From Marchantia polymorpha subsp. ruderalis (taxonomy: Eukaryota > Streptophyta > Marchantiopsida > Marchantiales > Marchantiaceae), in the NCBI GenBank assembly GCA_037833965.1, contig AP031354.1:20376001-20440000 (forward strand): a stretch of DNA of 64,000 nt, in the 5' to 3' direction. Shown here piece by piece: positions 65 through 61,811 of the stretch; position 1 is the stretch's first letter, and every line of letters starts with the position of its first letter. The translations under genes were made by a program, and so were the position numbers. The notes under the pieces were generated by a model that did not search any database, was not told the DNA's origin, and was given only the letters and a program-made list of their open reading frames with translations.

Positions 65-66
65 GA

Positions 67-1344: not shown

Positions 1345-1380
1345 CGTAGTGCAGTGTAGTGCTAGGTAGGACTTAGAAGG

Positions 1381-16381: not shown

Positions 16382-16385
16382 TTTT

Positions 16386-16404
16386 TGGTTCCGTTGCCGG
16401 GACC
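16386..16404 (+). promoter_or_regulatory. D primer-binding site
   Basis: TGGTTCCGTTGCCGGGACC, four T residues after the LTR end. It resembles the tRNA-Asp-type site of A and B except at positions 4-6. The exact tRNA is uncertain. Confidence 0.6.
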
Positions 16405-17058
16405 TCAATCTAGAAGGCGGAATGTTTAGGATTCGATTTCTAGCTCGAGAAAAAGTATCCATGAGGGATCACTTGGTGTTAACATTGGGGAATGAAAGAG
16501 CGGAGAGTGTGCTTGAGAGCGAAATTCCCTTTGTTTATCCCATAGTCTCATATGATAGCCTAGAAGTGATTTTGTATGTTTTGTTCACGTAAACATGTCT
16601 TTTTGAGAGAAAAGTGATTTTAGACACCGAAGAAGTATTTTTGAAGTTTTTCTTCAAAGTTTTTATTGATTTTAGATTGGAAGATAGAGAACGTTTACGT
16701 TTTTGTTTTAGGTCTAGAGCATGTGTAAACAAAAAGATATGAGAGTTAGAAGTTGAGGGGTTTTCACGGGTATCAAAAGTCTGCTCTCTGGAAAGTTTGT
16801 ACAGAGTTGATTACTTTTTCTGTATTTCAATTTAGGCTTTGAAACTTCGTACGAGTGTGTATTAGAAGATAAGCTACGTTTGAGTCAAAATTTCACTGAG
16901 AGATCACGTCTAGAGACAAAGTTATTATGATTTGAAGTTGAGGGGGTACAAAAGCAAGATAACAAAGCAAAAGTTTTTGATTTCTTCATTCACAGTTTTC
17001 GTCAAGTAGATAGCGTTTCTGGGAGAGGTCTTTTGAGTGGTTTCTGTCTTATGGGAAA

Positions 17059-17502
17059 ATGAGTGAACAAGAAGGTTGGAAGATTAGGTTATCCAAAGTA
17101 CCTCAAGGCTTGGATGTTATAGTGTCTTTAGACTCCAATACAAGAGAATTCAAGGTAGAGTTTGAAGAAAGAGTAGTGAGTCAATCTCCAAGAGTCAAAC
17201 GTGAAACTTGTTTTTATTGTGGAGAGGAGGGCCATAAGGTTGTCAATTGTTCCCTACGGAACAAAGATAGAAGATTGAGGAGCAAGAGGAACTTGGGAGA
17301 TTTGAAACTTCACTTGGGACCATCATCGCCACATGAATCCCAAAGCGCGACCTTCTGTGACAATTGCGGAGTGATTGGGCTACCAGCGGGACACGAATGC
17401 AGCGGAGTGAAGGCACTTCTGGAATCACTTGTGGAAGGGTTTGACGGCAAGCTAAGTGCTGAAACAGAGAAAGTGACCTCAGCGGGTTCAAGCTCCAACT
17501 GA
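17059..17502 (+). CDS. D upstream ORF: small zinc-knuckle protein
   Basis: 147 codons between PBS and gag-pol, in a different frame from gag-pol and ending 214 bp before it. It contains a perfect CCHC knuckle, CFYCGEEGHKVVNC (CX2CX4HX4C), and a second Cys/His cluster, CDNCGVIGLPAGHEC. Gag knuckles normally lie at the end of gag; here an additional one precedes gag. It could bind element RNA, but that is inference. The region 16405-17058 upstream has only short ORFs (for example 16377-16592) that I cannot support. 17503-17716 is AT-rich leader. Confidence 0.55.
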   Translation: MSEQEGWKIRLSKVPQGLDVIVSLDSNTREFKVEFEERVVSQSPRVKRETCFYCGEEGHKVVNCSLRNKDRRLRSKRNLGDLKLHLGPSSPHESQSATFCDNCGVIGLPAGHECSGVKALLESLVEGFDGKLSAETEKVTSAGSSSN

Positions 17503-17716
17503 AGATGGAGATCATCATTCGAATGATGGAGAAGATGATGATGAGGGTAAGACTCATCGTATGCCTAGGAGAGGAGAGAGCTTTGGCTATCTTGGAACAA
17601 CCAATTCCTTTTGTGTTTCCTTTGATGAATTACTCAAGGATGGAGTTAGTGTTGTTTATATTGTATTAGGAAGCCCCATATAAATTTCCAATAAAAATAA
17701 AAATAAAAAAAATTAG

Positions 17717-22489: not shown

Positions 22490-22512
22490 TGAAATCTTGG
22501 TCCGGGGGTAAA

Positions 22513-23373
22513 TGTAAGACCGGGTGTTGCACATATGTACTAAGTCTTAGAAGTGGTCAAGGGAATAAGGATGATTAGCCAAGGCATAGCTAAGACTAGC
22601 TAGTTATGACTAAACTAGTTAGTTATAACTAAGTTTATCTAGTCATGACTAAGTTTAGCTACAATGTCTATAGTTGGCGGAGTAATTAGCGGAGTTCTAG
22701 AAGAATGGAGTGAGCACTTCTATTTTGTCTTTTACAAGGAGTGAGCACTTCTATTTTGTCTTATACAAAAGTTCTAGATTCCAAGGGATTAGATATTTGA
22801 CTAGAAGCTTGGATTTGATTGGTTTGACTAAATGTATGAAAGATGATTGGCTAGACTAAGTCTAATGTTGACTTAGTGGCTAGGAAGCTTGTAGAAGTTT
22901 AAAAGCTTCCAATGGCATGTCGCCACCTCAACCTTGGATTCCGGAAGCTTCTAGAAGGTTTAGGTAGGCCAATGGCATGTTGCCACGTAGAGAAGGTTAG
23001 TCAAACTTACCTAGGTAAAAGTAAGTTAGGAGAAATTACCACATGTTACTATGGTAACTTCTCAAGTAGTATAAATAGAGAGGTAGAGTAGCACCTCTCA
23101 AGCAAGTTTGGAGAGTCATGTGTGAGGACTTGTTTCAATAATGAAGGAGTGAAGTTTTCGAGTATCTTGGAGTATCGACGTGTGTTTGCGTTTATGTGAA
23201 GAGGGTGATGTGAGGAGAGTTTGTGTGTGTGAGTTGGAGTGATACATGAGAGTTTGTGAGAGAAGGTGTTTGTGACATGAGTGAGAGTATGAATCCTAGT
23301 CTTCTAGAACCATGATGCGCTACCACAAAGCCATCAGAGGTAGACCTGAGTGAGAGTCAGCCCGGAGGTTGCA
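22513..23373 (+). mobile_element. D 3' LTR (861 bp)
   Basis: Same length and, by eye, same sequence as the 5' LTR. It is preceded by a short purine-rich CCGGGGGTAAA and followed by the GTTC target duplication. TATA box at 23070-23077. No gene. Confidence 0.95.
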
Positions 23374-23374
23374 G

Positions 23375-25000
23375 TTCCAACGTAGGAAGGGGAAGGAGCC
23401 GGCGGAAGAGCCGCCTACGAGACACCGGCCCTCGGGGCCAGACCCTCCGGCGCACCACGCGCCGCAATTTGCGCCTTCGGCGCCAGGGCCTTCGAGCCGA
23501 GGAGATACGAGCAGGGAGCGTGCGAAGGCCGCACCATCGGCGGGTAGTCCGCCGATAGATGCGCCTTCGGCGGTAGGGCCTATAGGCCAAGGGACATCGG
23601 GCGAGCGGCCCCCGGCCATGTCGCCTTTGGCGATGGATGTCCGCGGCGCTACGCCTGCGGCGGACAAGGCGCCGGCATTTGCGCCTGCGCACAGGCCAAG
23701 CACAGCCCCCACGGACCGATCAAGGGAGCAGCAACAGACGGAGGAGCGGAGTGACTGTCCGCGGGATGAAATTTCGATGCGCGATGCGCAATCAAACCCC
23801 GCGCAGCCACCCTCCGCTCGATCGCCTTCGGCGGCGGGCGTCGGCGGCAGAGAGGACACGGTAGACGACCAACAAGCGAGCGGCGGGGATGCTGCACGGG
23901 CACATTCGCCTACCGCCTTAGACATTTTGGCGAAGAGCAGCGAGGCTGCAGCCGTGCCTTCGCAGGCAGCACACGTCGACGACGTGCAGCCCCACTCGGG
24001 TCAGTCGCCGACGCAATCAATGGCGACTGAAATTCTCCACTCGGATGATGACGACGGAGGCTCCACCGAAGAAATGTCAGGAGCAGAGGACACCGAGGAG
24101 GAGGAGGAGGAAATTGTTGGAGCGCCGGCGGCGGCGCTCTCTGAGCAGGTGATTCCGTTGCTGAGGTACTTGGATCGCAAGGTCGATAAATACGCCGACC
24201 CACTTCAGCCGGGATCTTACATCGAGTTAGTGCGCAGGCGAACTCGCACTAAAGTCCACACCAGCAAGCTGTTAGCTAGAGTGGACCAGGAGTTGAGGGA
24301 ATTGAAGGAGAAGCATGCATGCTTGTGGGGTCAGTATAAACTTAATCAGAAATTCTACAAGTACTCCGAGAAGGTGAGGGATGAGAAACTGGATGAGCTC
24401 ACCAAGGAGCAGGTGAAGGTCAAGGAAGCACTAATTTCTGAGCAGGCCTAGAATCGGATTTTGTCAGAGGAGCTCGTGCGACAGACGCGGTTGTTGGAAC
24501 AATGTCAGCTCGCACGGCAGGCGGATGAGGAGTTAATCCGCAGGTTACAGTCAGAGTGTGGCGAATTGAGAGCGCAACGTGCTGAGGCCGAATCGCAATT
24601 AGTGATAATTGAAGAGGATCGCAGGAAAGAGGCAGATCGCACGAAGGTGGAGACGGCGAGGCGTGTCGCCCACTGTCTCAAGGACTACGCCCACTGGGAA
24701 GTGAAGGCGCAGGAGAAACTCACACTGCGTGAGTTTGAACTTCGCGCAGCCGGGTTGTTGTCAGGCGACAGTAGGAGTCGGCGGAAGGTAGCAAAGAAGC
24801 TCGATGCTTTTCTGTCCAAGGCGCAGGATACTATGTCCGCCCTCGAAGTGGAGGTGTCCGCGGCGTTGCAACGATTGGGACTGCGCAGTCGAGCGGAAGA
24901 TTGGCAGGGTAGGGGGTTAGTGCGCGGCAGTCCGCCGCGCAGGAGACGTAGCACAGGTTCCGCGGAGTGTAGTGTAGCGTGGTTCCGTGCAGGCGTGTAG
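23375..25000 (+). pseudogene. LTR-encoded coiled-coil protein, C-terminal part (B 5' LTR)
   Basis: Continues the low-complexity region (PAEEPPTRHRP, repeated PSA motifs), then the acidic segment, LLRYLDRK and the coiled coil. It contains one nonsense codon, TAG at 24449-24451, where G has CAG (SEQAQNRI), a C to T change. Beyond it the frame continues to the normal end with HWEVKAQEKLTLREFELRAA and a basic tail. The start codon of this segment is only apparent, because the ORF began before D. It shares the end STGSAECS with G. Confidence 0.65.
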
Positions 25001-25036
25001 CGTAGTGCAGTGTAGTGCTAGTTAGGACTTAGAAGG

Positions 25037-25065
25037 TATAAAATAGTTCCAGGCGTTCTGCCTGG
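25037..25065 (+). promoter_or_regulatory. B LTR core promoter: TATA box and hairpin
   Basis: TATAAAA (25037-25043) followed by CCAGGC-GTTCT-GCCTGG (25049-25065). It is 37 bp after the stop of the LTR ORF and drives the genomic RNA. Confidence 0.7.
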
Positions 25066-26015
25066 GGTTCTTTCCCAAACTCAGAAGTTTAGATCAGGAA
25101 CCCATTTCCTTTGCGTGTTTGTGTCCTTGAGTTCTGTCACCACGCACGAGGAGTTACAACTTAGCGTTCCGCATTTTGTAACTGAAGGCCTTCGGTCGAA
25201 TGTTCAGAGCTAGTACATTGGTTAGAGACTTGAGTAGTTCGGAACTGCACCTGCGGGTGACTGCCGATGCTCAGAGCCAGTGACTAGTTAGATACTTGAA
25301 CAGTTTCGCCCCTACACCTTCGAGTGTTTCTTTCTGATTGTACTCCTTTGGGATTTTTCCCCTGAATGCCAAAGTGAAGTTTTGCTACTTCGTGTAAGCC
25401 TTGGTTGTAAATTCAGGTTACGCTGCAGAAGGTGCCTTGAGGGTAACCCCTGTAGTATTTCTGGGAATGACAAGTGCCTGAGAATTCAAACTCTTCAATA
25501 GACTGTTGTTGTGTTACTGGAATGTTTCTCAGTGAGTCCTTCAGTGCGGACCTGTGTTCTCTGCGCGTTTTGTGAGTTGAGAGTGTTGTTCACCGCGTAT
25601 GAGTGACTTCGATCCGAAGTAGGCAGTCCAAACCGGGTTTCCTACACTAGCAGCAAGCTAGTGGAAGTGTTGTAAAAGCCGGAGTTGGAAGTCACTACCC
25701 GCAGCTTCGCCGAGTGTGCTCGCGAGAGACTTTTTCCCCTGAAATCTTGAGTAGAGGTCCTAACGGATCTCTGGGTTGTGTTTCTGTAGTTTCAGGTGTG
25801 TGTGTGTGTGTGTGTTTTACGCTGCACTGTGCGACCTCCGAGTGCGCTCCGAGTGGACACTTGCAGTATTTCTGGGAGTGACAGTTGCTTGAGAATTCAA
25901 ACTCCTCAATAGTCTGTTAAAACGTGACACTTTGTACCCTGTGTGTTCCTCTGTCCCTGTGGGTTCGACCTTTCTACCACTATATTGCAGTTTTAGCCTT
26001 TAGTGGGTTATTACA

Positions 26016-41387: not shown

Positions 41388-44300
41388 TGTGGTAACACAC
41401 TTTTTGTTTTTTTTGCAGAATTTAAACAATTTTAGAAAACTAGTACCAAAGCAGTGTTTGTAGCTAGAGAAGGGTACGCTAAATAGAGTGGATTGATGAG
41501 ATCGTCACGAGGGCACAAAGAATCACGTAGTCGGATGTACCAACGCCAACGTCTTCGGCGCCTTCGGCAAAAGCTCCTTTTTGAGGTGTCTCTACTCACG
41601 CGCCTCTAGCGTATAAGGAAGCTACGCTTCCGGCGCAGACACCTCAGGAGGAGGTTTTGCTAAAGACGTCAGGAGAAGGGCCCGGACCTCTAAAGGCATC
41701 CGACCATGAGTGCGCCTTCGGCGAAGCGCCGCTAGCGCGGAAAGGGAAAAACCTTCATAACAATCGGGATACACGGTAGATCCAGTTGGTTGAAGTTGCC
41801 TTAGAAAGAGCGCGGGACACTCGTTCTAACGAGTCCAAGAGCGTCGGAGATGGACCAGGAATGGAGAAGTTATGAGCGTCGGAAAACTCGTAGCCGGACA
41901 TGCGCCGTTCGCGCTAGGGTTCACAGCCGGAAAGGATTCCCGTACGCCCTCGGCGATGCGCCTTCGGTGGAATCACGCGCTCATAGGAGGAAACCCACTC
42001 AGAGTCGGAAGCGCCTTTGGCGGCGGTCCATGGAAGGAAAGCGCCGGTCGGATGTACGTCTCCGACGTGGCGCTGACAGCCGGATGCGCTGGCATGAGTT
42101 GCGCTGGCGGAAATGCGCCGGCAGCAACGGACGAGGCATAAAGGACAAAATAGGCGGTACGACTGCGCGCCGGCGTAATTCGATCCGACTGGATGTGCGC
42201 CTCCAGCAAGGCGCCGACGGATAATGAACGCACCAGCGGCGACACGCCTCCGGAGAAGGGCGGGTTAGGAAAAGACAACAGGGTCGACGTATACCCTGCA
42301 GCGGACTCGAGTCCGGAAGGTGGCGGCGGCGGGAGAATTCAACGTTTAAGCATGCGAATGCGCGCAATGCGGAGACGTGAATTCGCGCATGCAAAGGGCG
42401 AACCGTTAAGCCGTATAGCCGACTGCGTACGTTGCAACCAGTAAGAACGTTGGACGTTCTTGAAATCGGAGAAGAAAAGACTGCACTCCAGTCTCATTCT
42501 CTCATTCTTGGCTTTGCGATTTCCAGTTCCAAGATAACGCGCAAGGGCGGAGCGACCTGCAGTGAGAGTAGAGAGTGCGGAAACGAGTTGCGCAAGGATC
42601 TTGGCGGACCTTGAAAGAATTGGGAGTAGCGATCTTGAACGAGCGCAGAGAGAGTGAGCAGTCAGTGCTTGAGTGGCCGACGCGCAGTGGCGATTGTGAG
42701 AGAGCGAGCGAAAGGGAGAACGTTTGTGTGTGTGCAGGCAACGCAATGTCGAAGGTTCCCCAGCTGCGAGTGTCTCCACTCAGGGTGCCGCAGATCGGTC
42801 TACGCGCATTTCAAGATGTGCTGTTGAGGCTGAAGCTCGATTTTCTCCTATGGGGGTGGAATTGGACATGTCCGGAGATGGTGCGCGAGTATCTGCAAGA
42901 GAGACACAAGCCTTCTCGCGGATTTCGCCCACACCCAGAGAGATGGGACATTTGCAATTGGGCGCAGGTGTTGGGCAGGTGTGCCGGCGAGGAAGGGGAT
43001 CTCCTCTTCGAGGCCGACAGCGTGAAGGTGTCCCAGGAGGAAGAAGTCTCTTACAATGAGCTCTTCAAGGTGGCTAGACATCCCAAGAACGGTTTCCGGA
43101 CACGGGATTACAAGGATCGATTGCGGAGAAATGTCGCGACGGCATTGCTGCAGATATTGCAGCCGACCAAGACCGCTTACATGCATGGTTGGCAGGTAGA
43201 GTTCGTGGAGCTAGTGCTGTCAGGAGCTCCGGTGCATTGGGCACGGCTCCTGTGGAAGGTGACGCGCCAACATGCGCAAGAAGAGAGGGGAGGAACCCTC
43301 AATCATCTATCGCCTTACTTAATCGTGTTTTACCGGGCGATGGGATGTTTGACGAATGCTGAGAAAACTCGGTTTCCGCAGCTGACCCGGACTTATCCAG
43401 GTAGATATTCGAGGGAGGCCGAAGTAGACACGGATCCGGACGAGGAACCTGCCAGTACGCCTCCGGCTCCGGCTCCAGCAAGGGCAGCAGAAGAACGTCG
43501 AAGTGAGCGCATTCCGCGAAAGCGGAAGTGGGATGAGAGACCTGAGGACAGGCAGCCGGAAGTGCCAGCTGCGCCGACTCGTGGTCGGCCCACCCCCGAG
43601 CCTCACAGTCGACCAAAACAGAGGGCACGCAAAATGCCAACTGTTACTGAGGAGACCAGGCGAACTCCGACCCGGCGGAATCTCACACAGGAAGAGATAA
43701 TCGCTCAGATCCTAGGGAAGACGGCAGAAACCTCTGCACAGAAGGCACCACGGCCTTCGGGAGGAGATGGACGGACTGACAGCCGGCCGACTGCGAGTCG
43801 GATGACTGAAGGTCGACAAGCGGAAGGAAGGCCAACTGAACGGCGCGTTGAACCGGACAGCAGGCCGGAAGCAGAAGAGAGTTTGGCTGACGAGCCAACA
43901 ATCCTCAGAGGGTCGTCTTCGGCGGAAGGCACTTCTGGAAGAACGCCACCAACAAGCAGGCCAAGTGGAGTCAAGACGCGCAGGGTATATCCGACTCCCA
44001 GTCGGACAACTGCTGGTCGGCCGACTGCGAGTCGGACAACAGAGAGTCAGTCGGATTCGCCGACTGCGAGACGGATGGGGCCAACGACGAGTGTGCGGAC
44101 GCCTTCGGCGGACGCACCTTCAGCAAGGACACCTCCCGCGCAGATTGCGCCGGAAGGACAGGCAGCAGAAGCGGGCGGTGCAAGAGTGACAAAAGTCACT
44201 GCGGCGTCGACCCCTTCACAAACCGAAGATCGAGCCGGAACAGGGGCTCAAGCAGTGGGATCTCCCACTGCCATGGATATTTTAGCAGGCAGTGGAGCAG

Positions 44301-46263
44301 CAGTCGCAGCGGAAGCTGCTGCGCGCCACAGTTCCAGGGAGTCGCCAAGGGATTCGGTGGCGACTGAAATCCTCGAGACTGAGGATGATACGAGCTCGGA
44401 AGAGCAAGAAGCGGATTCGGTGCAAAAAACGCCAACAGGGGTGCTGTGCGAACAGATAGTTCCACTCCTGCGATATCTGGATCGCAAGACATCCAAATAC
44501 GCAAGTGCCTTAAAACCGCTGTCTTATGTGGAGACAATCAGGCGAAGGACGAGGAGCAAGGTGGCAAGGTGGGCCTCTAGGTGCCAAGTATATGTGGATA
44601 GGAACACCGCCCTCCGACAACACCTGGCGGTCACCCAGAAGCTATACCAAGCCTTGCAGCAGCAGAAGGAGGATGCGGCGACGAAGAGTCAGGCGGATGC
44701 CGAACTAATACGGGCAAAGATCGAGTCGGAATTGCAGGAGGAGCGGAGACAGAACAAAGTCCTAGCAGCCGAGCTTGCGCGCCAGACGCGCGCCTTAGAA
44801 GAAAGTCAAAGAGCCCGCAAGGAGGATGAGGAGTTGTTGTGCAACTTGCAATCCGAGTGCTCGGAATTGAGGGCACAACGTGCGGGATTGGAAATGCAGC
44901 TGGCAGAGGTGGAGAGCAGCTGCAGGGCACGAGGAGAGTTGGCGGCACGGGTGACTCGTTGTCTAAACGGATACACCCATTGGGAGGTGGCAGCTCAAGA
45001 GAGGGTTACACTCCGGGAGTTCGAGCTTCGGGCGGCGGCCTTGACGGAAGGTGACAGTCGGAGTCGGCGGCGAGTGGCGAGAAAATTAGAAACCTTCTTG
45101 TCGGGTGCGCGCGACACTATGGCGCACTTGCAGTCGGAAGTCACCACAGCGCTCCGACGCCTGGGGTTACGCAGCCGGTCGGAACACTGGCAAGGTAGAG
45201 ATAGTAAGCGGAGCAGTCCGGCGCGCAGGAGGCGCAGCACCGGATGTGCTGAGTGCAGTAGAGTAGTTTGGTTTCGCGCAAATGCTGCGAATGGTAGATA
45301 GGATAGCGTAGTGCTAGTTAGGATCTTTTGAGAGTATAAAGTAGATCAAGGCGTTTTGCCTTGGGACTCTTCCAGTTTCGGAAGTGCAGATCAGGAACTC
45401 ACTTTCTTGGCGTGTTTGTGCATTTGGTCCTGGCACCACGTAGAGAAGCTGCAGCATAGCGAAGTTACCGTATGTTGTAGTTGAAGGCCTTCGGCTGAAT
45501 GTTCAGAGCTAGCACCCGGTTAGAGACTTGAGTAGTGCGGATCTGCACCTGCGGGTGATTTCTGATGCTCAGAGCCGGCTGCGAGTTAGATACTTGAACA
45601 GTTCCCCCTTACTCCTTCGAGTGACATATCCTGATTGTACTCCTACGGGAAGTTTCCCCTGAATGCCAATGTGAAGTTTCATTACTTCGTGTAAACCTTG
45701 GTTTGTAATTCAGGTTGTGTGTGTGTTACTGGATCGTGTTTTCAGTAAGTTCTCAGTCGGGTCTGCACTCCCTGCGTTTTGTGTGATAGTCGAGGGTGAC
45801 GTCCACGGCGTACGTAGAGGCTTCGTTCCGAAGTGAGAAGTCCAGTCCGGGTACCCCCGCTAGTTCTTGGCGGAAGGGCAGTAAAAGCCGGAGTGGGAGG
45901 CACTTCCTGCAGAACCTCTGAGTGAACTTGCGAGACACTTTCCTCCTGAAATCCGAAGCGGAGGTCCTGACCGACCTCCGAGTTGTGCTTTTTTTGCCAG
46001 TTTCAGGTGTGTGTGTGTGTGTGTGTGTTGAGTGACCACGCTGTACCGTGCATCCTCCGAGCATCCTCCGAGTTGAGATCCTCCTCCGAGTCGAGCCTCC
46101 GAGTCGAGCACTGCAGTATTTCTGGGAGTGACAGTCGCCTAGAATTCAAACTCTACAAAAGTCTGTTAAACGTGACACTTTTACTCTGTGTGTTGCCTCT
46201 GTCCCTGTGGGTTCGATCTTTTTACCACCATACTGCAGTTTTAGCCTTTGGTGGGTTATTACA
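41388..46263 (+). mobile_element. A LTR 2 (4876 bp)
   Basis: Shared by both internal copies: 3' LTR of the first, 5' LTR of the second. TATAAA at 45335-45340, GT repeat at 46007-46028. It differs from LTR 1 by one T in the initial run and a few substitutions. No supported gene other than the 908-codon ORF. Confidence 0.93.
42575..45301 (+). CDS. LTR-encoded coiled-coil protein (A LTR 2, intact)
   Basis: Same 908-codon frame as in LTR 1, with one amino-acid difference near the C-terminus (Arg instead of Met in the basic ARRRRSTG motif). The conserved internal start is the ATG at 42746. A CAG preceded by a GT/T-rich run ends 7 nt before it (42722-42738) and looks like a splice acceptor. As part of a 3' LTR it could be translated from a spliced or internally initiated RNA of copy 1. 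Confidence 0.75.
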   Translation: MRKRVAQGSWRTLKELGVAILNERRESEQSVLEWPTRSGDCERASERENVCVCAGNAMSKVPQLRVSPLRVPQIGLRAFQDVLLRLKLDFLLWGWNWTCPEMVREYLQERHKPSRGFRPHPERWDICNWAQVLGRCAGEEGDLLFEADSVKVSQEEEVSYNELFKVARHPKNGFRTRDYKDRLRRNVATALLQILQPTKTAYMHGWQVEFVELVLSGAPVHWARLLWKVTRQHAQEERGGTLNHLSPYLIVFYRAMGCLTNAEKTRFPQLTRTYPGRYSREAEVDTDPDEEPASTPPAPAPARAAEERRSERIPRKRKWDERPEDRQPEVPAAPTRGRPTPEPHSRPKQRARKMPTVTEETRRTPTRRNLTQEEIIAQILGKTAETSAQKAPRPSGGDGRTDSRPTASRMTEGRQAEGRPTERRVEPDSRPEAEESLADEPTILRGSSSAEGTSGRTPPTSRPSGVKTRRVYPTPSRTTAGRPTASRTTESQSDSPTARRMGPTTSVRTPSADAPSARTPPAQIAPEGQAAEAGGARVTKVTAASTPSQTEDRAGTGAQAVGSPTAMDILAGSGAAVAAEAAARHSSRESPRDSVATEILETEDDTSSEEQEADSVQKTPTGVLCEQIVPLLRYLDRKTSKYASALKPLSYVETIRRRTRSKVARWASRCQVYVDRNTALRQHLAVTQKLYQALQQQKEDAATKSQADAELIRAKIESELQEERRQNKVLAAELARQTRALEESQRARKEDEELLCNLQSECSELRAQRAGLEMQLAEVESSCRARGELAARVTRCLNGYTHWEVAAQERVTLREFELRAAALTEGDSRSRRRVARKLETFLSGARDTMAHLQSEVTTALRRLGLRSRSEHWQGRDSKRSSPARRRRSTGCAECSRVVWFRANAANGR

Positions 46264-46303
46264 TAAGGAGCCGACAACTTCTTTTTGGCGCCGCTGCCGG
46301 GGA
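46264..46303 (+). promoter_or_regulatory. A copy 2 spacer and primer-binding site
   Basis: Same 22-nt spacer (46264-46285) and TGGCGCCGCTGCCGGGGA (46286-46303) as copy 1. Confidence 0.75.
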
Positions 46304-46346: not shown

Positions 46347-49175
46347 ATGTCGACGAGCGATAGTGTGGGAAACCTGAGTGCGAGAGCCACACGGAAACTC
46401 CGTCGAGATTCAGAAAAAGCCGTGGAAACAAAACGGCGAACTAAAAAGAAGACCCCCGGTGAGGACTCTGCAGAAAGATCGCCATCACCGACTACTGGAA
46501 GACAAAGGCGTTCCAGTTCACCTACCGAGAGCATTGAGCTAACAGTTCTATTGGACATCCCTCCGACGGGAACTCTTCCTGAGTTTGGCCAACCTAGGAT
46601 CAGTCCGTCGACAGGATCATCGATGGCAGAACATCAAGCCAATCTCCGCCAGGTGTTTTCCCAACCTACCACCAAACATTCGTATCCAAGATACACGGGA
46701 ACGGGCGACGACGATGATGCAGATTCATACATAAAGCTCTTCGAGTCTGTCTCCATCGCCAATCGTGAGACCAGTGATGAAGACAGACTACGAATCTTTC
46801 CTAGCCTGCTACGCAGACGAGCGCGTAGCTGGTACAACCATGAGAGCACCGACCCCACTGGCATCCGGACCTGGGCTCAGCTCAAGGAAAAGTTTCTGAG
46901 GCGGTTCCGCGAACTCGGATATGACAGTCGAGTTCTGACCCGGCTTCGAAATCTTCGACGCGAGCGGAAGGAGAATCTTCGAGACTACACTGAGAGATTC
47001 CAAGACCTCCTAGATCGAATTCCGAAGACAGGCCCAGGAGAACCATACTCGGTACAACAGGCAGTGGATTGGTATGTGACAGGGCTCTCAAGAGAAATGG
47101 AGACCTTCTGTAGGAGAGGCAAGACTGACACAATCCAAGATGTGATAGCTTCCGCGGAGACCTTTGAGACGTCAACCCTTGACACTCGAAGACGCGACCG
47201 ACGGTCGACGAAGAAGAAGTCGCAAGGCGGACGCCGGAAGAGAAGGAACTCGCCTTCCTCGACAGAAGAATCAAGCTCCTCCGAATCAAGTTCTTCCTCG
47301 GAAGAGGAAGAGGACTCGTCATCTTCAGAAGAAGAAAGACGGAAGAAGAAACGCAGTGCGATCAAGAAGAAGGATCGAGGTAAGGGAATCCCAGTGCAGA
47401 CTCAAGGGGACATCGCAGCCAAGGTAGACAACCTGGTGAAGAATTTTGCGGACCTGAAAGTTCATGTAGTGGGAGGCCAAGACCGACGTAAATCACCTGC
47501 GAGGCAACGAGCGAATCTCTGGTGTACTACGTGCGGACAGGTGGGACATGCCAACAAGGAGTGCATGTCCGCGCGGCCATCTTACCCAGTGAATGCGGTC
47601 GAATGGGCACCACAGTGGGAGAACCCCATGTATTATGCTGAGCCACCTATGTATTATGCTGAGCAGGTTGAGGACACCGCCTACTCGGTACAGACAGCTC
47701 CAGCTACAACTCCGAACCCACCGGTGCATATACCGCGCTTTGTTCCGAGGGAAATGGCGGGTACACTCCCACCAAGACGCATGGCACCTCCAGGCAATCA
47801 CAACCGACCTCGACCACAATTCGATGGTTGCTACAACTGCGGAGACATGGGGCATTACGCGCCAAGCTGTCCCCACCCGAGGAAGCCAATGGGGTATGCA
47901 CCGTTGTGCAGCAATTGCAAGAAGTCTGGACACACAGTAGCCGAATGTGATCAGCCCCAACTCCCTAGGCCAGCAGTGCGTTTCGTATCAACACCTGGCA
48001 AGGAAGAAGTGCAGGTCAACCAGGTAGAACTGAGTCTGGACCCAGATGAAGGAAACGAAGTATGGCCAGAGGAAGAAGTGATGTGCGGTCGGGTAGAAAC
48101 CCGAAGTTCGAAGAGGAGGGGAGAAGGTCACGAGGACACTCGCCGCCTCGAGCGTAGAGAAGAGAGAAGGAAGTCTAAAGAAGATAGAGAAGGCCAAAGA
48201 AGGAGGCCGGGTACACCTCCGGCTATGAGAAACACCCAGCCGGAGCAGAACTCAGAAAAGGCGGACAGGTATTCGGAAGAGTCCCGGACTCGAGATTACC
48301 TTCCGGACATCAAAGATGAGGTGAGTCACCTCATCAAGGAAGCACTGGGCGCCGGAATGACATCCGACGACCGGAAGGCGGTTAGGCCCCCTACACCCCT
48401 TCCGACCGCGAGTACAGGGAAACTTCCGGCTGTGACTTCCAACACTTCCTACGACATAGTGAAAGACATGGGGAGCCAGAGGGCAAATATTTCCTTCCAC
48501 CAGTTGTTGGAAGACAATAAGACGTACAGGAGGATGCTGATGCTTTCGTTGCGCCGACCACGCAAACCCCGAAAAGAGAAACTTCCGGCTGTGTACAGAG
48601 TGGAAGGAGGAGACCTGGGACCTCCAGAGATCGAGGTAGAGATCGGAGGCTGCGTCATACAGAAGGTACCAGTGGACTCCGGCTCGGGCGTGAATATCAT
48701 GACCGAGGAGACAGCGAACTCCTTGGGATTCCAGACCTTCGAACCTACATCCCGAGTATTGCGACTGGCCGATCAAACACGCAGAATGCCACTAGGAATG
48801 TTGAGCAATGTGAGAACCAACATTGGAGGAGTGGACTTTCAACTGTCCTACATAATACTGCAACCTCTGATGAAGAAAGGTTATGATGTGCTGCTTGGCA
48901 GACCGTGGCTATACGATGCCAAAGCAAGGTGTGACTGGAGTAGGAAGAGATTACAGTTCCGTAGCCCTGCGGACCCTCCGACTGTCATTACCGTACCATG
49001 GACCAAGGTACCCCATGAGGGCGAAACACCTTCCACCACCTCCGGTTACACAACCGGAGGGGAGACCAGCTCATCATGCACTTCCGAGACCGAAACGTCG
49101 GAGGAATTTGTGGGCTACGTCACTTGCTGCTCCATTGAGGAGGAAGGAGACGAGGTGTATCCGGATGACGAATAG
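46347..49175 (+). CDS. gag: A gag-protease, copy 2 (942 aa)
   Basis: Intact. Domain order as in copy 1: capsid domain, Ser/Glu linker, three CCHC knuckles, DSGSG protease. It has Glu in MAEHQ and Gln in PVQTQ where copy 1 has Lys in both. It ends in TAG (49173-49175) with CAACTA following. Confidence 0.95.
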   Translation: MSTSDSVGNLSARATRKLRRDSEKAVETKRRTKKKTPGEDSAERSPSPTTGRQRRSSSPTESIELTVLLDIPPTGTLPEFGQPRISPSTGSSMAEHQANLRQVFSQPTTKHSYPRYTGTGDDDDADSYIKLFESVSIANRETSDEDRLRIFPSLLRRRARSWYNHESTDPTGIRTWAQLKEKFLRRFRELGYDSRVLTRLRNLRRERKENLRDYTERFQDLLDRIPKTGPGEPYSVQQAVDWYVTGLSREMETFCRRGKTDTIQDVIASAETFETSTLDTRRRDRRSTKKKSQGGRRKRRNSPSSTEESSSSESSSSSEEEEDSSSSEEERRKKKRSAIKKKDRGKGIPVQTQGDIAAKVDNLVKNFADLKVHVVGGQDRRKSPARQRANLWCTTCGQVGHANKECMSARPSYPVNAVEWAPQWENPMYYAEPPMYYAEQVEDTAYSVQTAPATTPNPPVHIPRFVPREMAGTLPPRRMAPPGNHNRPRPQFDGCYNCGDMGHYAPSCPHPRKPMGYAPLCSNCKKSGHTVAECDQPQLPRPAVRFVSTPGKEEVQVNQVELSLDPDEGNEVWPEEEVMCGRVETRSSKRRGEGHEDTRRLERREERRKSKEDREGQRRRPGTPPAMRNTQPEQNSEKADRYSEESRTRDYLPDIKDEVSHLIKEALGAGMTSDDRKAVRPPTPLPTASTGKLPAVTSNTSYDIVKDMGSQRANISFHQLLEDNKTYRRMLMLSLRRPRKPRKEKLPAVYRVEGGDLGPPEIEVEIGGCVIQKVPVDSGSGVNIMTEETANSLGFQTFEPTSRVLRLADQTRRMPLGMLSNVRTNIGGVDFQLSYIILQPLMKKGYDVLLGRPWLYDAKARCDWSRKRLQFRSPADPPTVITVPWTKVPHEGETPSTTSGYTTGGETSSSCTSETETSEEFVGYVTCCSIEEEGDEVYPDDE

Positions 49176-52053: not shown

Positions 52054-55000
52054 TGTGGTAACACACTTTTTGTTTTTTTTGCAGAATTTAAACAATTTTA
52101 GAAAACTAGTACCAAAGCAGTGTTTGTAGCTAGAGAAGGGTACGCTAAATAGAGTGGATTGATGAGATCGTCACGAGGGCACAAAGAATCACGTAGTCGG
52201 ATGTACCAACGCCAACGTCTTCGGCGCCTTCGGCAAAAGCTCCTTTTTGAGGTGTCTCTACTCACGCGCCTCTAGCGTATAAGGAAGCTACGCTTCCGGC
52301 GCAGACACCTCAGGAGGAGGTTTTGCTAAAGACGTCAGGAGAAGGGCCCGGACCTCTAAAGGCATCCGACCATGAGTGCGCCTTCGGCGAAGCGCCGCTA
52401 GCGCGGAAAGGGAAAAACCTTCATAACAATCGGGATACACGGTAGATCCAGTTGGTTGAAGTTGCCTTAGAAAGAGCGCGGGACACTCGTTCTAACGAGT
52501 CCAAGAGCGTCGGAGATGGACCAGGAATGGAGAAGTTATGAGCGTCGGAAAACTCGTAGCCGGACATGCGCCGTTCGCGCTAGGGTTCACAGCCGGAAAG
52601 GATTCCCGTACGCCCTCGGCGATGCGCCTTCGGTGGAATCACGCGCTCATAGGAGGAAACCCACTCAGAGTCGGAAGCGCCTTTGGCGGCGGTCCATGGA
52701 AGGAAAGCGCCGGTCGGATGTACGTCTCCGACGTGGCGCTGACAGCCGGATGCGCTGGCATGAGTTGCGCTGGCGGAAATGCGCCGGCAGCAACGGACGA
52801 GGCATAAAGGACAAAATAGGCGGTACGACTGCGCGCCGGCGTAATTCGATCCGACTGGATGTGCGCCTCCAGCAAGGCGCCGACGGATAATGAACGCACC
52901 AGCGGCGACACGCCTCCGGAGAAGGGCGGGTTAGGAAAAGACAACAGGGTCGACGTATACCCTGCAGCGGACTCGAGTCCGGAAGGTGGCGGCGGCGGGA
53001 GAATTCAACGTTTAAGCATGCGAATGCGCGCAATGCGGAGACGTGAATTCGCGCATGCAAAGGGCGAACCGTTAAGCCGTATAGCCGACTGCGTACGTTG
53101 CAACCAGTAAGAACGTTGGACGTTCTTGAAATCGGAGAAGAAAAGACTGCACTCCAGTCTCATTCTCTCATTCTTGGCTTTGCGATTTCCAGTTCCAAGA
53201 TAACGCGCAAGGGCGGAGCGACCTGCAGTGAGAGTAGAGAGTGCGGAAACGAGTTGCGCAAGGATCTTGGCGGACCTTGAAAGAATTGGGAGTAGCGATC
53301 TTGAACGAGCGCAGAGAGAGTGAGCAGTCAGTGCTTGAGTGGCCGACGCGCAGTGGCGATTGTGAGAGAGCGAGCGAAAGGGAGAACGTTTGTGTGTGTG
53401 CAGGCAACGCAATGTCGAAGGTTCCCCAGCTGCGAGTGTCTCCACTCAGGGTGCCGCAGATCGGTCTACGCGCATTTCAAGATGTGCTGTTGAGGCTGAA
53501 GCTCGATTTTCTCCTATGGGGGTGGAATTGGACATGTCCGGAGATGGTGCGCGAGTATCTGCAAGAGAGACACAAGCCTTCTCGCGGATTTCGCCCACAC
53601 CCAGAGAGATGGGACATTTGCAATTGGGCGCAGGTGTTGGGCAGGTGTGCCGGCGAGGAAGGGGATCTCCTCTTCGAGGCCGACAGCGTGAAGGTGTCCC
53701 AGGAGGAAGAAGTCTCTTACAATGAGCTCTTCAAGGTGGCTAGACATCCCAAGAACGGTTTCCGGACACGGGATTACAAGGATCGATTGCGGAGAAATGT
53801 CGCGACGGCATTGCTGCAGATATTGCAGCCGACCAAGACCGCTTACATGCATGGTTGGCAGGTAGAGTTCGTGGAGCTAGTGCTGTCAGGAGCTCCGGTG
53901 CATTGGGCACGGCTCCTGTGGAAGGTGACGCGCCAACATGCGCAAGAAGAGAGGGGAGGAACCCTCAATCATCTATCGCCTTACTTAATCGTGTTTTACC
54001 GGGCGATGGGATGTTTGACGAATGCTGAGAAAACTCGGTTTCCGCAGCTGACCCGGACTTATCCAGGTAGATATTCGAGGGAGGCCGAAGTAGACACGGA
54101 TCCGGACGAGGAACCTGCCAGTACGCCTCCGGCTCCGGCTCCAGCAAGGGCAGCAGAAGAACGTCGAAGTGAGCGCATTCCGCGAAAGCGGAAGTGGGAT
54201 GAGAGACCTGAGGACAGGCAGCCGGAAGTGCCAGCTGCGCCGACTCGTGGTCGGCCCACCCCCGAGCCTCACAGTCGACCAAAACAGAGGGCACGCAAAA
54301 TGCCAACTGTTACTGAGGAGACCAGGCGAACTCCGACCCGGCGGAATCTCACACAGGAAGAGATAATCGCTCAGATCCTAGGGAAGACGGCAGAAACCTC
54401 TGCATAGAAGGCACCACGGCCTTCGGGAGGAGATGGACGGACTGACAGCCGGCCGACTGCGAGTCGGATGACTGAAGGTCGACAAGCGGAAGGAAGGCCA
54501 ACTGAACGGCGCGTTGAACCGGACAGCAGGCCGGAAGCAGAAGAGAGTTTGGCTGACGAGCCAACAATCCTCAGAGGGTCGTCTTCGGCGGAAGGCACTT
54601 CTGGAAGAACGCCACCAACAAGCAGGCCAAGTGGAGTCAAGACGCGCAGGGTATATCCGACTCCCAGTCGGACAACTGCTGGTCGGCCGACTGCGAGTCG
54701 GACAACAGAGAGTCAGTCGGATTCGCCGACTGCGAGACGGATGGGGCCAACGACGAGTGTGCGGACGCCTTCGGCGGACGCACCTTCAGCAAGGACACCT
54801 CCCGCGCAGATTGCGCCGGAAGGACAGGCAGCAGAAGCGGGCGGTGCAAGAGTGACAAAAGTCACTGCGGCGTCGACCCCTTCACAAACCGAAGATCGAG
54901 CCGGAACAGGGGCTCAAGCAGTGGGATCTCCCACTGCCATGGATATTTTAGCAGGCAGTGGAGCAGCAGTCGCAGCGGAAGCTGCTGCGCGCCACAGTTC

Positions 55001-56929
55001 CAGGGAGTCGCCAAGGGATTCGGTGGCGACTGAAATCCTCGAGACTGAGGATGATACGAGCTCGGAAGAGCAAGAAGCGGATTCGGTGCAAAAAACGCCA
55101 ACAGGGGTGCTGTGCGAACAGATAGTTCCACTCCTGCGATATCTGGATCGCAAGACATCCAAATACGCAAGTGCCTTAAAACCGCTGTCTTATGTGGAGA
55201 CAATCAGGCGAAGGACGAGGAGCAAGGTGGCAAGGTGGGCCTCTAGGTGCCAAGTATATGTGGATAGGAACACCGCCCTCCGACAACACCTGGCGGTCAC
55301 CCAGAAGCTATACCAAGCCTTGCAGCAGCAGAAGGAGGATGCGGCGACGAAGAGTCAGGCGGATGCCGAACTAATACGGGCAAAGATCGAGTCGGAATTG
55401 CAGGAGGAGCGGAGACAGAACAAAGTCCTAGCAGCCGAGCTTGCGCGCCAGACGCGCGCCTTAGAAGAAAGTCAAAGAGCCCGCAAGGAGGATGAGGAGT
55501 TGTTGTGCAACTTGCAATCCGAGTGCTCGGAATTGAGGGCACAACGTGCGGGATTGGAAATGCAGCTGGCAGAGGTGGAGAGCAGCTGCAGGGCACGAGG
55601 AGAGTTGGCGGCACGGGTGACTCGTTGTCTAAACGGATACACCCATTGGGAGGTGGCAGCTCAAGAGAGGGTTACACTCCGGGAGTTCGAGCTTCGGGCG
55701 GCGGCCTTGACGGAAGGTGACAGTCGGAGTCGGCGGCGAGTGGCGAGAAAATTAGAAACCTTCTTGTCGGGTGCGCGCGACACTATGGCGCACTTGCAGT
55801 CGGAAGTCACCACAGCGCTCCGACGCCTGGGGTTACGCAGCCGGTCGGAACACTGGCAAGGTAGAGATAGTAAGCGGAGCAGTCCGGCGCGCAGGAGGCG
55901 CAGCACCGGATGTGCTGAGTGCAGTAGAGTAGTTTGGTTTCGCGCAAATGCTGCGAATGGTAGATAGGATAGCGTAGTGCTAGTTAGGATCTTTTGAGAG
56001 TATAAAGTAGATCAAGGCGTTTTGCCTTGGGACTCTTCCAGTTTCGGAAGTGCAGATCAGGAACTCACTTTCTTGGCGTGTTTGTGCATTTGGTCCTGGC
56101 ACCACGTAGAGAAGCTGCAGCATAGCGAAGTTACCGTATGTTGTAGTTGAAGGCCTTCGGCTGAATGTTCAGAGCTAGCACCCGGTTAGAGACTTGAGTA
56201 GTGCGGATCTGCACCTGCGGGTGATTTCTGATGCTCAGAGCCGGCTGCGAGTTAGATACTTGAACAGTTCCACCTTACTCCTTCGAGTGACATATCCTGA
56301 TTGTACTCCTACGGGAAGTTTCCCCTGAATGCCAATGTGAAGTTTCATTACTTCGTGTAAACCTTGGTTTGTAATTCAGGTTGTGTGTGTGTGTTACTGG
56401 ATCGTGTTTTCAGTAAGTTCTCAGTCGGGTCTGCACTCCCTGCGTTTTGTGTGATAGTCGAGGGTGACGTCCACGGCGTACGTAGAGGCTTCGTTCCGAA
56501 GTGAGAAGTCCAGTCCGGGTACCCCCGCTAGTTCCTGGCGGAAGGGCAGTAAAAGCCGGAGTGGGAGGCACTTCCTGCAGAACCTCTGAGTGAACTTGCG
56601 AGACACTTTCCTCCTGAAATCCGAAGCGGAGGTCCTGACCGACCTCCGAGTTGTGCTTTTTTTGCCAGTTTCAGGTGTGTGTGTGTGTGTGTGTTGAGTG
56701 ACCACGCTGTACCGTGCATCCTCCGAGCATCCTCCGAGTTGAGATCCTCCTCCGAGTCGAGCCTCCGAGTCGAGCACTGCAGTATTTCTGGGAGTGACAG
56801 TCGCCTAGAATTCAAACTCTACAAAAGTCTGTTAAACGTGACACTTTTACTCTGTGTGTTGCCTCTGTCCCTGTGGGTTCGATCTTTTTACCACCATACT
56901 GCAGTTTTAGCCTTTGGTGGGTTATTACA
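52054..56929 (+). mobile_element. A LTR 3 (4876 bp)
   Basis: Terminal LTR of the array. It differs from LTR 2 by a nonsense change in the ORF, changed lengths of two GT runs (+2 and -2 bp; 56675-56694 is the main one) and two or more substitutions in U5. TATAAA at 56001-56006. It is followed by 24 bp identical to the leader of A, not by target sequence. Confidence 0.92.
53241..55967 (+). pseudogene. LTR-encoded coiled-coil protein (A LTR 3, nonsense)
   Basis: Same frame as in LTR 1 and 2, broken by TAG at 54405-54407 (CAG in the others, a C to T change) after residue 388, at the start of the disordered region. The remaining frame (to 55967) is open and retains the coiled coil. The N-terminal domain could still be made. 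Confidence 0.85.
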
Positions 56930-58056: not shown

Positions 58057-59301
58057 TGTGGTACCCCACTTTTGGCAATTTTGAGGAAATTAAAACATTT
58101 TTGGAAAATTGTACCCTGGCAGCATTGTAAATAGCCTTCGGTACATCAAAACGGAGTGAATCCGGAAGATCGCGGGGATTCTCGAGGGATCTTGTAGAAT
58201 CTAGGATTTGGGGTGCAGCAGTAAGGACAGGCACCACCCTCCCTGCGAGCTCTGCAGTTAGGATCCCTGCGACGCAAGGCGCAAAACCCGCCTTCGGAGG
58301 TTGCGTCCGCGGCGGTAGGGAATTCCTCCATAATTAGGTCAACCCTCGGGCGCCTTGACCAAGTTAGGGTCTCGTTGGAAAGAGCTCGACGCACTGATTC
58401 CAACGAGTCCAAGAACGCTGGGAACGGATGAGGACTTAGGGAGTTATCGCTATTGGAAGATACGGAGACGCTCGCCTTCGGCGGAAGGAGTTCGCCACCG
58501 GCGGGAATTCTGCCTACGCGGAAGGGGGAATCAAGTTTTGTCCTATGCGCGGACGAAGGAAGTTCGCCTGTGCACAGGCGAAGTAGGGTTTGGGGAGGCG
58601 CGAAGTCCGCCTACGCACAGGCGTTCGCCTGTGCACATGCGCTTCGGCGTCGGCGGAAAATCCGCCTTGGGCCCTAGAAATGCGCCTTGTGAGGTAGAAA
58701 GTGTACGGCGCCTTCTGCGCCAGCGCGGCGCCGCGGACGGGCAAGGAGCCGCCAGAGTAATCAAATCCGTACGGACCATGCGGACGGGACGGGTGGATGC
58801 GCTCTCGGACGGACGGAATTGCGGCGGCGGAAGCGCCGACAGAGAGACAAGGAACGGACAGACTGGACGGAGACGGCTGACCACGGTCAACGCCTTCCGC
58901 GCCAGCGCGACGCCACGCACGGAATTCGCCTGCGCACAGGCGAGTGCCTGTGCACAGGAGGATGAAGTTCCGCGCCGGCGGAGAATCCGCCGAGGAGTCT
59001 GCCTGCACACAGGCAGGAGTTGAACTTTTGTCCGACATGCGGACACACGCGTCGAGGCAGAAGGGGATTGGCCGAGGGGCGGTACGAACAAGTGTACCAC
59101 GCAAGGCGGAAAACTCGCCTTCGGCACTACGCTCCCATGTCCGCGGGGTAATACGCTCGCGGAGTTCAAATCCGCCAATTCGAGCGTGAGAGTTTAATCG
59201 GCGACGGCGGAGCGTGAAGCCGCGCGTGAGAGCGGAGACCGTTCCAGCGTAGAGCCGGCGCGGCCATCAAGTGAGACGTCCTCCACGAGCAAGAGCCGAC
59301 C

Positions 59302-59955
59302 ATGACCTTCGACCGGGCGGCGGAGAGCGTCCCATTCTTGAATTCGCGATTCCAATCTCTTGTGCGCGCTGCGCGCATCCAATTGCTGGCTGCTAAACAT
59401 TCTCGACGTCGCCGCACAGGGGATTTCTTGGTGATTGAGGGAGAAGTGAGTGCGCGGGATTTGGAATTGAGGGCGATTAGAGTTTGCCGAGAGAGAAAGG
59501 AGCTCGGGCGGTGCGGAAGTAGAATGAGCGGGCGAGCGAACTCCAGGAACGCAATGACGAGACCGGGCAGATTGCGGATGGTGCCACTTCGCCTACCACA
59601 GAACGGGCTGCGCGCTTTCGAGGAGCGCTTAATAGCAAGAAAGCTCGATTTCTTGCTATGGGGATGGAACTACATCTGTGCGAATATGGTGCGCGAGTGG
59701 CTAGAGCCACAGGGACCACCCTCGCGCGGATTGCGTCCGCATGTTGATCGGTGGACAGTCCAAGATTGGGCGCAGGCATTGGGAAGATGTGCCGGCATGC
59801 CAGGGCATCTCCTTTTCGACAGTGAGAGCATCAAGGTGACCAAGCAGGAAGAGGCGCAATTTGTGGAGCTGTTCAAGACCGGGAGGTCTACCAAGAATGG
59901 GTACAGGACCCGTGATTACAAGGATCGATTTCGCCGGACTTTGTCCGCGCGCTGA
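59302..59955 (+). pseudogene. LTR-encoded protein, N-terminal part (B 3' LTR)
   Basis: Same 217-codon frame as 14029-14682, one residue different (Arg for Trp). It ends at the same TGATG stop/start overlap. Confidence 0.65.
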
Positions 59956-60504
59956 TGCAATTACTGCAGCCACACCGTGCCTGCTACATCACATTGTGGC
60001 AGGTCTCTTTTGTGGAGTGCGTCATCGAGGGAACTCCAATTCACTGGGCGAGCATCCTGCACAGGGTGATGCGACAGCACGCTTTTGAGGAGAAGGGGGG
60101 AACTCTAAACCATCTCTCTTCTTTCCTCATCAATTTTTATCGACAGCGGAATTGTTTGACAGCGGCGGAGCTTGAGCATTTTCCGCCGTTGTCCGTCGAC
60201 CATCCCGGGAAGTATGTGCGGGAGAATGAGGTCGACACTGATGCAGAGGAGTCACCAACTTCTACCCCATCAAGGCGGAGGGACGAAGGGAGAAACACTC
60301 CTGCAGCACGAGTGCCGCGGAAGCGGCGATGGAGAGAAGAGTCCGAAGAGGAGCAGCATCAAGAACCCTCTGCTCCCATTCGACCGCGGCCGTTGTACGA
60401 GTCATACAGCCGGCCGAAGCAGAAGGCACGCAGACTGGTGTTACCAGCCAACAGTGCGGACACGGCGACGATTGCGACGGAGAAAGGAAGTGCGTCGCCA
60501 GAAA
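59955..60504 (+). pseudogene. LTR-encoded protein, middle part (B 3' LTR), truncated
   Basis: Shifted frame as in the 5' LTR, with MQLLQPHRACY and SRPKQKARR. It ends at the junction with H; the residues beyond 60504 are antisense H sequence and meaningless. Confidence 0.6.
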
Positions 60505-60506
60505 TG

Positions 60507-61811
60507 CACCATCCCCAACGCTTCTCTCTCCGTCGTGGTGTACTTCCGCTCTGCTAGAGACAGCTGTCGGCTCGCGAAGTAGATCGGGTAGTCCTTTTTG
60601 TTGTCATCCTTTTGACTCAGTACTACACCGATGGCGAATGCAGATGTGTCAACGTAAACATGGAATGGTCGATTCCAGTCTGGACTCCTTAGTACGGGAG
60701 CAGTCGTGAGTTTCGCTTTAAGAGCCTCAAATGCTGACTGCTGGTTCGCACCCCAAGCATAAGGCTCGTCCTTCTTCAACAACTTGGTCAGGTCCGCCGC
60801 CAGTATTGCATACAGGTGTATGAATCTTCGGTAGTAGCCCACATGACCCAGGAATGCTCGCAGCTCTCTTAGATTCGTGGGCGGCTCAAGCTCGAGTATA
60901 ACCTTGACCTTCTCGATGTCCACCGCAATGCCGTCTGCCGAGACCCGATGACCCAACAAGATCCCACTAGTCATAAAGAAAAAGCACTTCTCGGGATGTA
61001 GTGATAAACTGCTCTCTCTACATTTATCGAAGGTCTGCTTCAAGTGACTTAGGTGTTCAGACCGCTTCCCAAAGACACAGAAGTCATCTATGAATATTTC
61101 CAGGAACTTCCTCAGTTGTTCCTGGAAGATATTGGTCATCATCCGTTGAAAGGTGGCAGGCGCGTTGCACAGACCGAAGGGCATCTTGTGGTATGCGTAA
61201 GTTCCCCAGTCGGTTGTGAACGTAGTTTTATCCTTGTCCTGTTCCCGGATAGACACCTGATTGTAACCTGAGAACCCATCCAGGAAGCTATAACATTCAT
61301 GTCCTGCGACATGGTCTAGAATGGCATCCGTGAATGGTAACGGGTGATGATCCTTGCGTGTTGCTGCATTCAACTTCCGGAAATCCTGACACACTCGTAT
61401 CTTACCCGTCAACTTCTTGGGTACGATAACAATCGGCGACACCCACTCACTGCTGAGCACGGGGTAAATAATACCAGCACTCAAGTACTTATCTATCTCC
61501 TCCTTAACTAGCAAGGAGTATTTTGGGTTGAGGCGATACTGGCGCTGTCGTATGGGTACTGAGTCGTCCAGTAAATCGATACGGTGTTCCCCATACCGTG
61601 CAGGTATCCCCTTCATGTCTTCGATCTTCCAGGCGAAGACGTCGACATAATGGCTAAGGAATGCCTGTACTTTCCTTAGCTCGTCTCCTCTCACTGCGCT
61701 TGATACCTTCAAGCACTTGTCGGGACTGAGTTGTACTTCGTGACAGTCACTAGGGTCGACAATGCCCTCGGTGTGACTCGTCTCACTCCTTCCCAGTCCC
61801 ACAGTTAATTG
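60507..61811 (-). pseudogene. pol: H RT, truncated in RNase H
   Basis: In frame with gag-PR after TAG, starting QLTVGLGRSE. RT motifs are complete (GYNQVSI, FIDDFCVFG). RNase H begins (VYVDTSAFAIG) and is cut after REALGMV. Integrase is missing. Confidence 0.9.

What the first reader, a model, noticed from the sequence alone, without database searches (positions are those of the whole stretch)
42575..45301. A 908-codon gene lies wholly inside the LTR (U3), in the env position of the genomic RNA
The ORF is in all three A LTRs, both B LTRs, G and F. It is upstream of the LTR TATA box, so it is in U3 and is transcribed at the 3' end of the genomic RNA, after integrase, like mouse mammary tumour virus sag. 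A and B differ a lot in DNA, yet the N-terminal domain, coiled coil and C-terminal motif are conserved as protein. Additional ORFs between LTR and gag or after pol are known in Tat/Ogre and Athila elements; a complete long gene inside the LTR is not something I know for plant Ty3 elements. It is not an envelope: no signal peptide or membrane segment.
Basis: partly seen in the sequence, partly recalled or inferred. Interest (0 to 1): 0.9.

Follow-up and report, generated by a model that had tools for sequence, protein, structure and literature searches.

The report
Gene hidden inside retrotransposon end repeats
A jumping element in a liverwort genome carries a complete, selectively maintained protein gene inside each of its two end repeats, a place where plant elements of this kind are usually thought to hold only control sequences, so even leftover single repeats keep the gene.

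Summary
Confirmed, with corrections. The window is from a Marchantia-type liverwort. The LTRs of the A element (4,876 bp, TGTGGTAACAC...GGTTATTACA) contain a long reading frame wholly upstream of a conserved TATA box, hence in U3. Its start is the conserved ATG at 42746 (851 codons), not the GTG at 42575. The LTR assignment holds outside the window: 16 of 20 genomic groups examined (of 39 found) have exact 5-bp target duplications at the LTR ends (5 pairs, 2 triple arrays, 9 single LTRs). At least 53 full-length A copies exist, 44 without a stop. One single LTR each of two older families (C, D), with duplications, also contains the gene. It is coding: pN/pS is 0.26 among 24 recent copies (0.08 in the N-terminal domain); dN/dS between families is 0.17-0.24 where not saturated. 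The protein is basic, with a conserved helical N-domain, NLS-like motifs, a disordered linker and a long coiled coil. I found no membrane segment and no Pfam, PDB or viral-fold relative; the 78 sequence relatives are Marchantia gene models plus five unnamed contig proteins. Function is inferred: most likely a nuclear, self-associating regulator of the element. There was no transcript evidence. My searches found no plant precedent in print; the position parallels MMTV sag.

The parts
41388..46263 (+). A LTR2, 4,876 bp, TGTGGTAACAC...GGTTATTACA
42746..45301 (+). LTR gene, 851 codons, from the conserved ATG
42575..42745 (+). open but poorly conserved codons before the ATG; probably not coding
42746..43390 (+). 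N-terminal helical domain (residues 1-215), pN/pS 0.08
43514..43633 (+). stretch with two NLS-like motifs, PRKRKW (residue 257) and RPKQRARK (residue 289)
43391..44410 (+). predicted disordered, Pro/Ser/Thr/Ala/Arg-rich linker (residues 216-555)
44411..45205 (+). C-terminal helical / coiled-coil part (residues 556-820)
45335..45340 (+). TATAAA conserved in A, B and F, 33 bp after the stop codon
41375..41385 (+). polypurine tract upstream of LTR2
46264..46303 (+). 22-nt spacer and PBS-like site TGGCGCCGCTGCCGGGGA (tRNA-Asp type by recall)
46347..49175 (+). gag-protease ORF, 942 aa
49275..52016 (+). RT-RNaseH-integrase ORF, 913 aa
30721..35597 (+). A LTR1; LTR gene 32080-34635, open
52054..56929 (+). 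A LTR3; LTR gene 53412-55967 with TAG at 54405-54407
12784..26015 (+). B 5' LTR, interrupted by another element at 15521-23376; gene pieces from the ATG at 14290 to 15530 and 23390-24991, frame-changed
58057..60508 (+). B 3' LTR, truncated; gene piece from about 59563, frame-changed
65..2357 (+). F LTR, 3' part; C-terminal half of the gene 130-1335
2358..3155 (-). G LTR piece; gene codons 27-157 at 2743-2360, ATG at 2650

Best explanation
Shown: a family of Ty3-type LTR retrotransposons in a Marchantia-type genome carries a complete protein gene of about 850 codons inside U3 of each LTR. By the ordinary copying of LTRs every complete insertion has two copies and a solo LTR keeps one. The gene is under purifying selection and lies in the LTRs of at least four families (A-D). 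Inferred: it is expressed from the 3' LTR at the end of the genomic or a subgenomic RNA, or from a promoter in the first 0.5-1.4 kb of the LTR. Inferred: the product is a basic, nuclear, coiled-coil-forming accessory protein that acts in trans on its own element, most likely by binding LTR chromatin or element RNA so as to promote transcription or oppose silencing, similar in role to 3'-end regulators of retroviruses and to anti-silencing proteins of transposons.
For: LTR status: 16 of 20 groups examined (of 39 found) with exact 5-bp duplications at the same TG...CA ends; four of six internal regions fetched hold full-length gag and pol matches between two gene-bearing LTRs. Coding: five of seven non-A pieces give dN/dS 0.17-0.24, two are saturated; shifted frames 0.81-1.77; pN/pS 0.26 overall and 0.08 in the N-domain among 24 distinct stop-free copies. 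Breadth: single LTR of family C with duplication TAGTT and an open 902-aa frame; single LTR of family D with duplication TTTCT. Nuclear/self-association inference: pI 9.8, two basic motifs, no membrane segment, a confidently predicted 130-residue helix.
Against: No expression, localisation or binding data. The N-domain has no recognisable relative, so the regulatory role rests on architecture alone. The basic motifs match by pattern in only 37 and 33 of 80 proteins, many of which are partial gene models. The gene evolves faster than gag and pol, as regulators do, but also env-like or structural proteins. No conserved splice acceptor or own promoter could be shown upstream of the ATG. Four of the 20 groups showed no exact duplication.
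Confidence: 0.5

Rival explanations
1. The protein is an RNA- or particle-associated factor: it binds element RNA or Gag and helps packaging, export or nuclear entry of the cDNA, rather than regulating transcription.
For: Very basic ends (pI 9.6-9.7) and a long coiled coil.
Against: No RNA-binding or Gag-like Pfam match; the elements already have zinc knuckles in gag.
Confidence: 0.25
2. The protein is an env-like or cell-to-cell movement protein, as proposed for 3' extra ORFs of other plant elements.
For: It follows integrase in the genomic RNA order, the env position.
Against: No hydrophobic segment (maximum 19-residue mean 1.12), basic, NLS-like motifs.
Confidence: 0.07
3. A captured host gene that now serves the plant; selection is on the host benefit and the LTR is only a carrier.
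For: Annotated as ordinary genes; one old family C single LTR keeps a 902-aa open frame while most other family C matches hold stops.
Against: Purifying selection is seen among recent A copies, 44 of 53 stop-free, as expected for an element gene; no copy outside an LTR-like setting was established.
Confidence: 0.1
4. The reading frame is a chance open stretch in a G+C-rich LTR, or the repeats are segmental duplications and not LTRs.
For: Only G+C content (0.56 in the LTR).
Against: dN/dS 0.17-0.24 in frame against 0.81-1.77 in shifted frames, pN/pS 0.26, duplications in 16 of 20 groups.
Confidence: 0.02

Closest known systems
Mouse mammary tumour virus sag (gene in the 3' LTR)
   Same: Accessory gene inside the LTR, making the LTR long; intact in nearly all endogenous copies according to the review (PMC3026287, passages read).
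   Different: Sag is a superantigen of a retrovirus with an env gene. Here the protein has 851 aa, no sequence or fold relationship was found, and pol ends 37 bp before the LTR, leaving no room for a separate env.
[not shown]
   Same: Reported from both Marchantia genomes of that study (PMC10508981, section 5 and passages read); no additional RNase H or chromodomain match in pol here.
   Different: No LTR-internal gene is described in what I read. Membership was not tested by phylogeny.
Extra ORFs (eORF/aORF) of plant elements: plant mobile domain, Transposase_28, Athila ORF-1, Retrosat2 ORF0
   Same: Fast-evolving accessory proteins; some with predicted nuclear signals, disorder and a C-terminal helix (PMC6317226, PMC11728184, PMC3485330, passages read).
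   Different: [quoted passage not shown] the first three Pfam families gave no match to the ten proteins scanned.
Foamy virus Bel/Tas and HIV Nef (recalled, no call)
   Same: Accessory genes that overlap the 3' LTR.
   Different: Not compared here.

Membership tests
Ty3-type LTR retrotransposon | Paired LTRs with TG...CA ends and short target duplication | tested here: met
   exact 5-bp duplications in 16 of 20 groups
Ty3-type LTR retrotransposon | gag and protease, then RT-RNaseH, then integrase | tested here: met
   Pfam matches in that order; full length in four of six internal regions
[not shown]
   no reference RT set at hand
[not shown]
   no such Pfam match in the A pol ORF at E up to 0.1
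Known plant extra-ORF families (plant mobile domain, Transposase_28, Athila ORF-1) | Pfam profile match | tested here: not met
   no match to these for the window N-domain and nine relatives at E up to 10, within HMMER's filters
U3-encoded accessory gene (works like MMTV sag) | complete ORF inside the LTR, upstream of the LTR TATA box | tested here: met
MMTV sag | sequence homology to the superantigen | tested here: inconclusive
   no Pfam or PDB sequence match of any such kind, but no direct comparison was made
Envelope protein | membrane segment | tested here: not met
   maximum 19-residue mean hydropathy 1.12
Expressed gene | transcript covering the ORF | not testable with these tools
   no RNA data

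The most novel reading that the evidence does not exclude
The LTR of this liverwort lineage is a self-contained gene unit: a trans-acting anti-silencing or transactivating protein is made from any LTR copy, solo LTRs included. Solo-LTR formation, usually the end of an element, would then leave a standing pool of helper genes for full-length copies. This would be a complete long gene in U3 of a plant retrotransposon, with a protein fold of its own, and possibly one old solo LTR whose gene has been kept by the host.
Probability: 0.3. Interest if true: 0.85.

Novelty: new variant of a known kind. Interest (0 to 1): 0.72.

Why it matters
LTRs of plant retrotransposons are generally treated as non-coding control regions. 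Here they carry a selectively maintained gene, so solo LTRs, usually counted as dead remains, may be expressed genes that influence active copies. It explains a set of Marchantia 'hypothetical protein' gene models as element genes. It offers an easily grown model plant in which the function of a retrotransposon accessory protein can be tested directly, and shows an LTR gaining a whole gene outside the retroviruses.

Tried and rejected
Homology to known proteins: Pfam on the whole ORF, on its two ends, on 79 aligned relatives (25 of 45 weakly matched families shown) and on ten proteins at E up to 10, PDB sequences, Foldseek against PDB with the full model and with the N-domain model, and against BFVD with the N-domain model gave no credible match; weak matches are coiled-coil or low-complexity ones. 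The N-domain model is of low confidence (mean pLDDT 57), so the fold searches are weak negatives. A host-gene reading of the family C copy was considered because no gag, pol or partner LTR was seen within the 40 kb fetched; its 5-bp duplication shows a solo LTR instead. A conserved splice acceptor before the ATG was looked for and not established, nor a conserved promoter upstream. My first LTR end (46287) was wrong: genomic copies end at GGTTATTACA, 24 bases earlier (one search found no 3' end; one search did). One search had two copies in the wrong orientation; its flank comparison is not used and one search replaces its pN/pS counts. In one search the B3 start was misplaced by a gap and is given here as about 59563. 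Four papers whose listing held 'inside/within the LTR' were opened at those passages; none describes a gene in a plant LTR.
Full report
What is there. The reading frame 42575-45301 (+) exists as described. The window is position 20376001-20440000 of contig C5 of a 241-Mb genome in nine contigs. The best annotated relative of the protein, 96% identical over 59% of the query, is Mp_8g15400 of Marchantia polymorpha subsp. ruderalis, so the host is M. polymorpha or close to it. Self-comparison shows three nearly identical A repeats (99.8-99.9%) at a spacing of about 10.67 kb. Between them lie a gag-protease and an RT-RNaseH-integrase ORF. A second element (B) is interrupted by the A array, and its own 5' LTR by another element; its two LTRs share 2,452 bp at 99.1%. 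B is not a tandem array, and both its LTRs hold pieces of the gene.

Start and state of the copies. The codons before the first ATG are poorly conserved (pN 0.47 and 0.49 in the two pieces with more than 25 codons there), while the conserved protein begins at the ATG at 42746, preceded by AACGCA in A, B and G. Four Marchantia gene models begin at the same place. The gene is thus 851 codons. In the window A LTR1 and LTR2 are open, A LTR3 has a TAG at 54405, B is frame-changed, F and G are fragments.

Is it really inside the LTR? A search of the whole genome listed 53 full-length matches at 97-100% identity, 44 without a stop; only 53 candidates were scored, so this is a lower bound. They form 39 groups: 28 single, 8 pairs, 3 triples. 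I read the flanks of 20 groups: the 8 pairs, the 2 triples outside the window and 10 of the 28 singles. Eighteen have the 5' end TGTGGT, and 16 have exact 5-bp duplications beside TGTGGT...GGTTATTACA: five pairs, two triples, nine singles. The other four (one pair with a changed last base, two wide-spaced pairs, one single) show none. Of six internal regions fetched, four carry full-length matches to gag (942 aa) and pol (913 aa), two are partial. The gene is therefore wholly inside the LTR of separate elements and of single, apparently solo, LTRs. The A array of the window itself has no duplication.

Position relative to transcription. GTATAAA follows the stop codon by 33 bp and is kept in A, B and F, together with much of the following 0.9 kb. 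This places the gene in U3. In genomic RNA it would come after integrase. No RNA data were available, and neither a conserved splice acceptor nor an own promoter could be shown.

Is it coding? Of seven B, F or G pieces compared with A, five give dN/dS 0.17-0.24 and two are saturated at synonymous sites; shifted frames give 0.81-1.77. By the same method A and B (or the inverted B-like piece) differ at 25% of non-synonymous sites in gag and 5-8% in pol, against 30-42% in the LTR gene; synonymous sites are saturated or nearly so throughout. Of the 28 A copies whose ORF I held (of 53), three with stops and one duplicate were left out; the 24 distinct stop-free copies give pN/pS 0.26 overall, 0.08 for residues 1-215, 0.33 for 216-555, 0.27 for 556-820 and 0.76 for the last 31 residues. 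Leaving out copies with stops favours a low ratio slightly. Selection has thus acted on the protein during recent spread, most strongly on the N-terminal domain.

Other families. A profile search found 78 proteins among 7,997 candidates scored: 73 Marchantia gene models and 5 from unnamed contigs. A relative at about 45% identity (P0016) defines family C: of 81 candidates scored, only one match to the whole N-terminal part is free of stops, in an open frame of 902 aa; one further partial match and some short pieces also lack stops. That copy lies in a 3,841-bp LTR with TGTGGTAG...CATTACA ends and duplication TAGTT; its end aligns to the A and B ends. In family D (P0007; 76 candidates scored, stops in most of the long matches) one of ten loci held, L094, shows both ends, a 3,921-bp LTR and duplication TTTCT. 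The LTR-internal gene is thus common to families A, B, C and D. The ends of the other C and D loci were not established.

The protein. 95 kDa, pI 9.8, no hydrophobic segment. AlphaFold with 79 sequences gives a helical N-domain (residues 17-209, moderate confidence), a disordered middle, and helices at 563-819 including one of 130 residues at high confidence; a separate N-domain model was worse. PRKRKW and RPKQRARK look like nuclear signals; such patterns occur in 37 and 33 of 80 relatives, many of them partial. No credible family, structure or viral-fold match was found.

How it most likely works. Position, basic charge, nuclear-type motifs and a self-association helix suggest a nuclear accessory protein that acts on the element's own LTR or RNA. 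The strict conservation of the N-domain beside a freely changing linker suits a binding domain plus a tether. This step is inference: about even odds for a regulator in the broad sense, less for the specific anti-silencing version.

Noticed in passing
46264-46303, 35598-35637, 26016-26055: A 22-nt spacer, almost identical in A and B, separates the LTR end (ATTACA, fixed by target duplications) from the PBS-like site; about 22 nt would have to be removed at this end before integration, more than usual as far as I recall.
   Followed up: partly
56930-56960: The right end of the A array keeps 24 nt of the leader, up to the first bases of the PBS, before B sequence resumes, and the array has no target duplication: an unprocessed or recombined end.
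   Followed up: partly
30721-56929; also G000 C5:9246393-9270257 and C7:486795-510661: Triple LTR arrays with equal spacing; the two outside the window have 5-bp duplications around the whole array, as expected from LTR recombination after one insertion.
   Followed up: yes
2357/2358: The F LTR ends exactly where the G copy of the LTR gene is cut: F appears to have inserted into G's gene.
   Followed up: partly
15521-23376: Another Ty3 element (864-bp LTRs, 99.9% identical, one 1,590-aa ORF) is inserted inside B's copy of the LTR gene.
   Followed up: no
3152-12783: A further Ty3 element on the minus strand, with LTR-like repeats of about 1.5 kb (98.0% identical).
   Followed up: no
G000 C6:13708915-13712755 (loci L082, L083): An old single LTR of family C keeps an open 902-aa frame while most other family C matches hold stops: a candidate for a co-opted gene.
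   Followed up: partly
public annotation (proteins P0001-P0080): Many Marchantia 'hypothetical protein' gene models are copies of this LTR gene; one (P0015) runs from the LTR gene into gag.
   Followed up: partly
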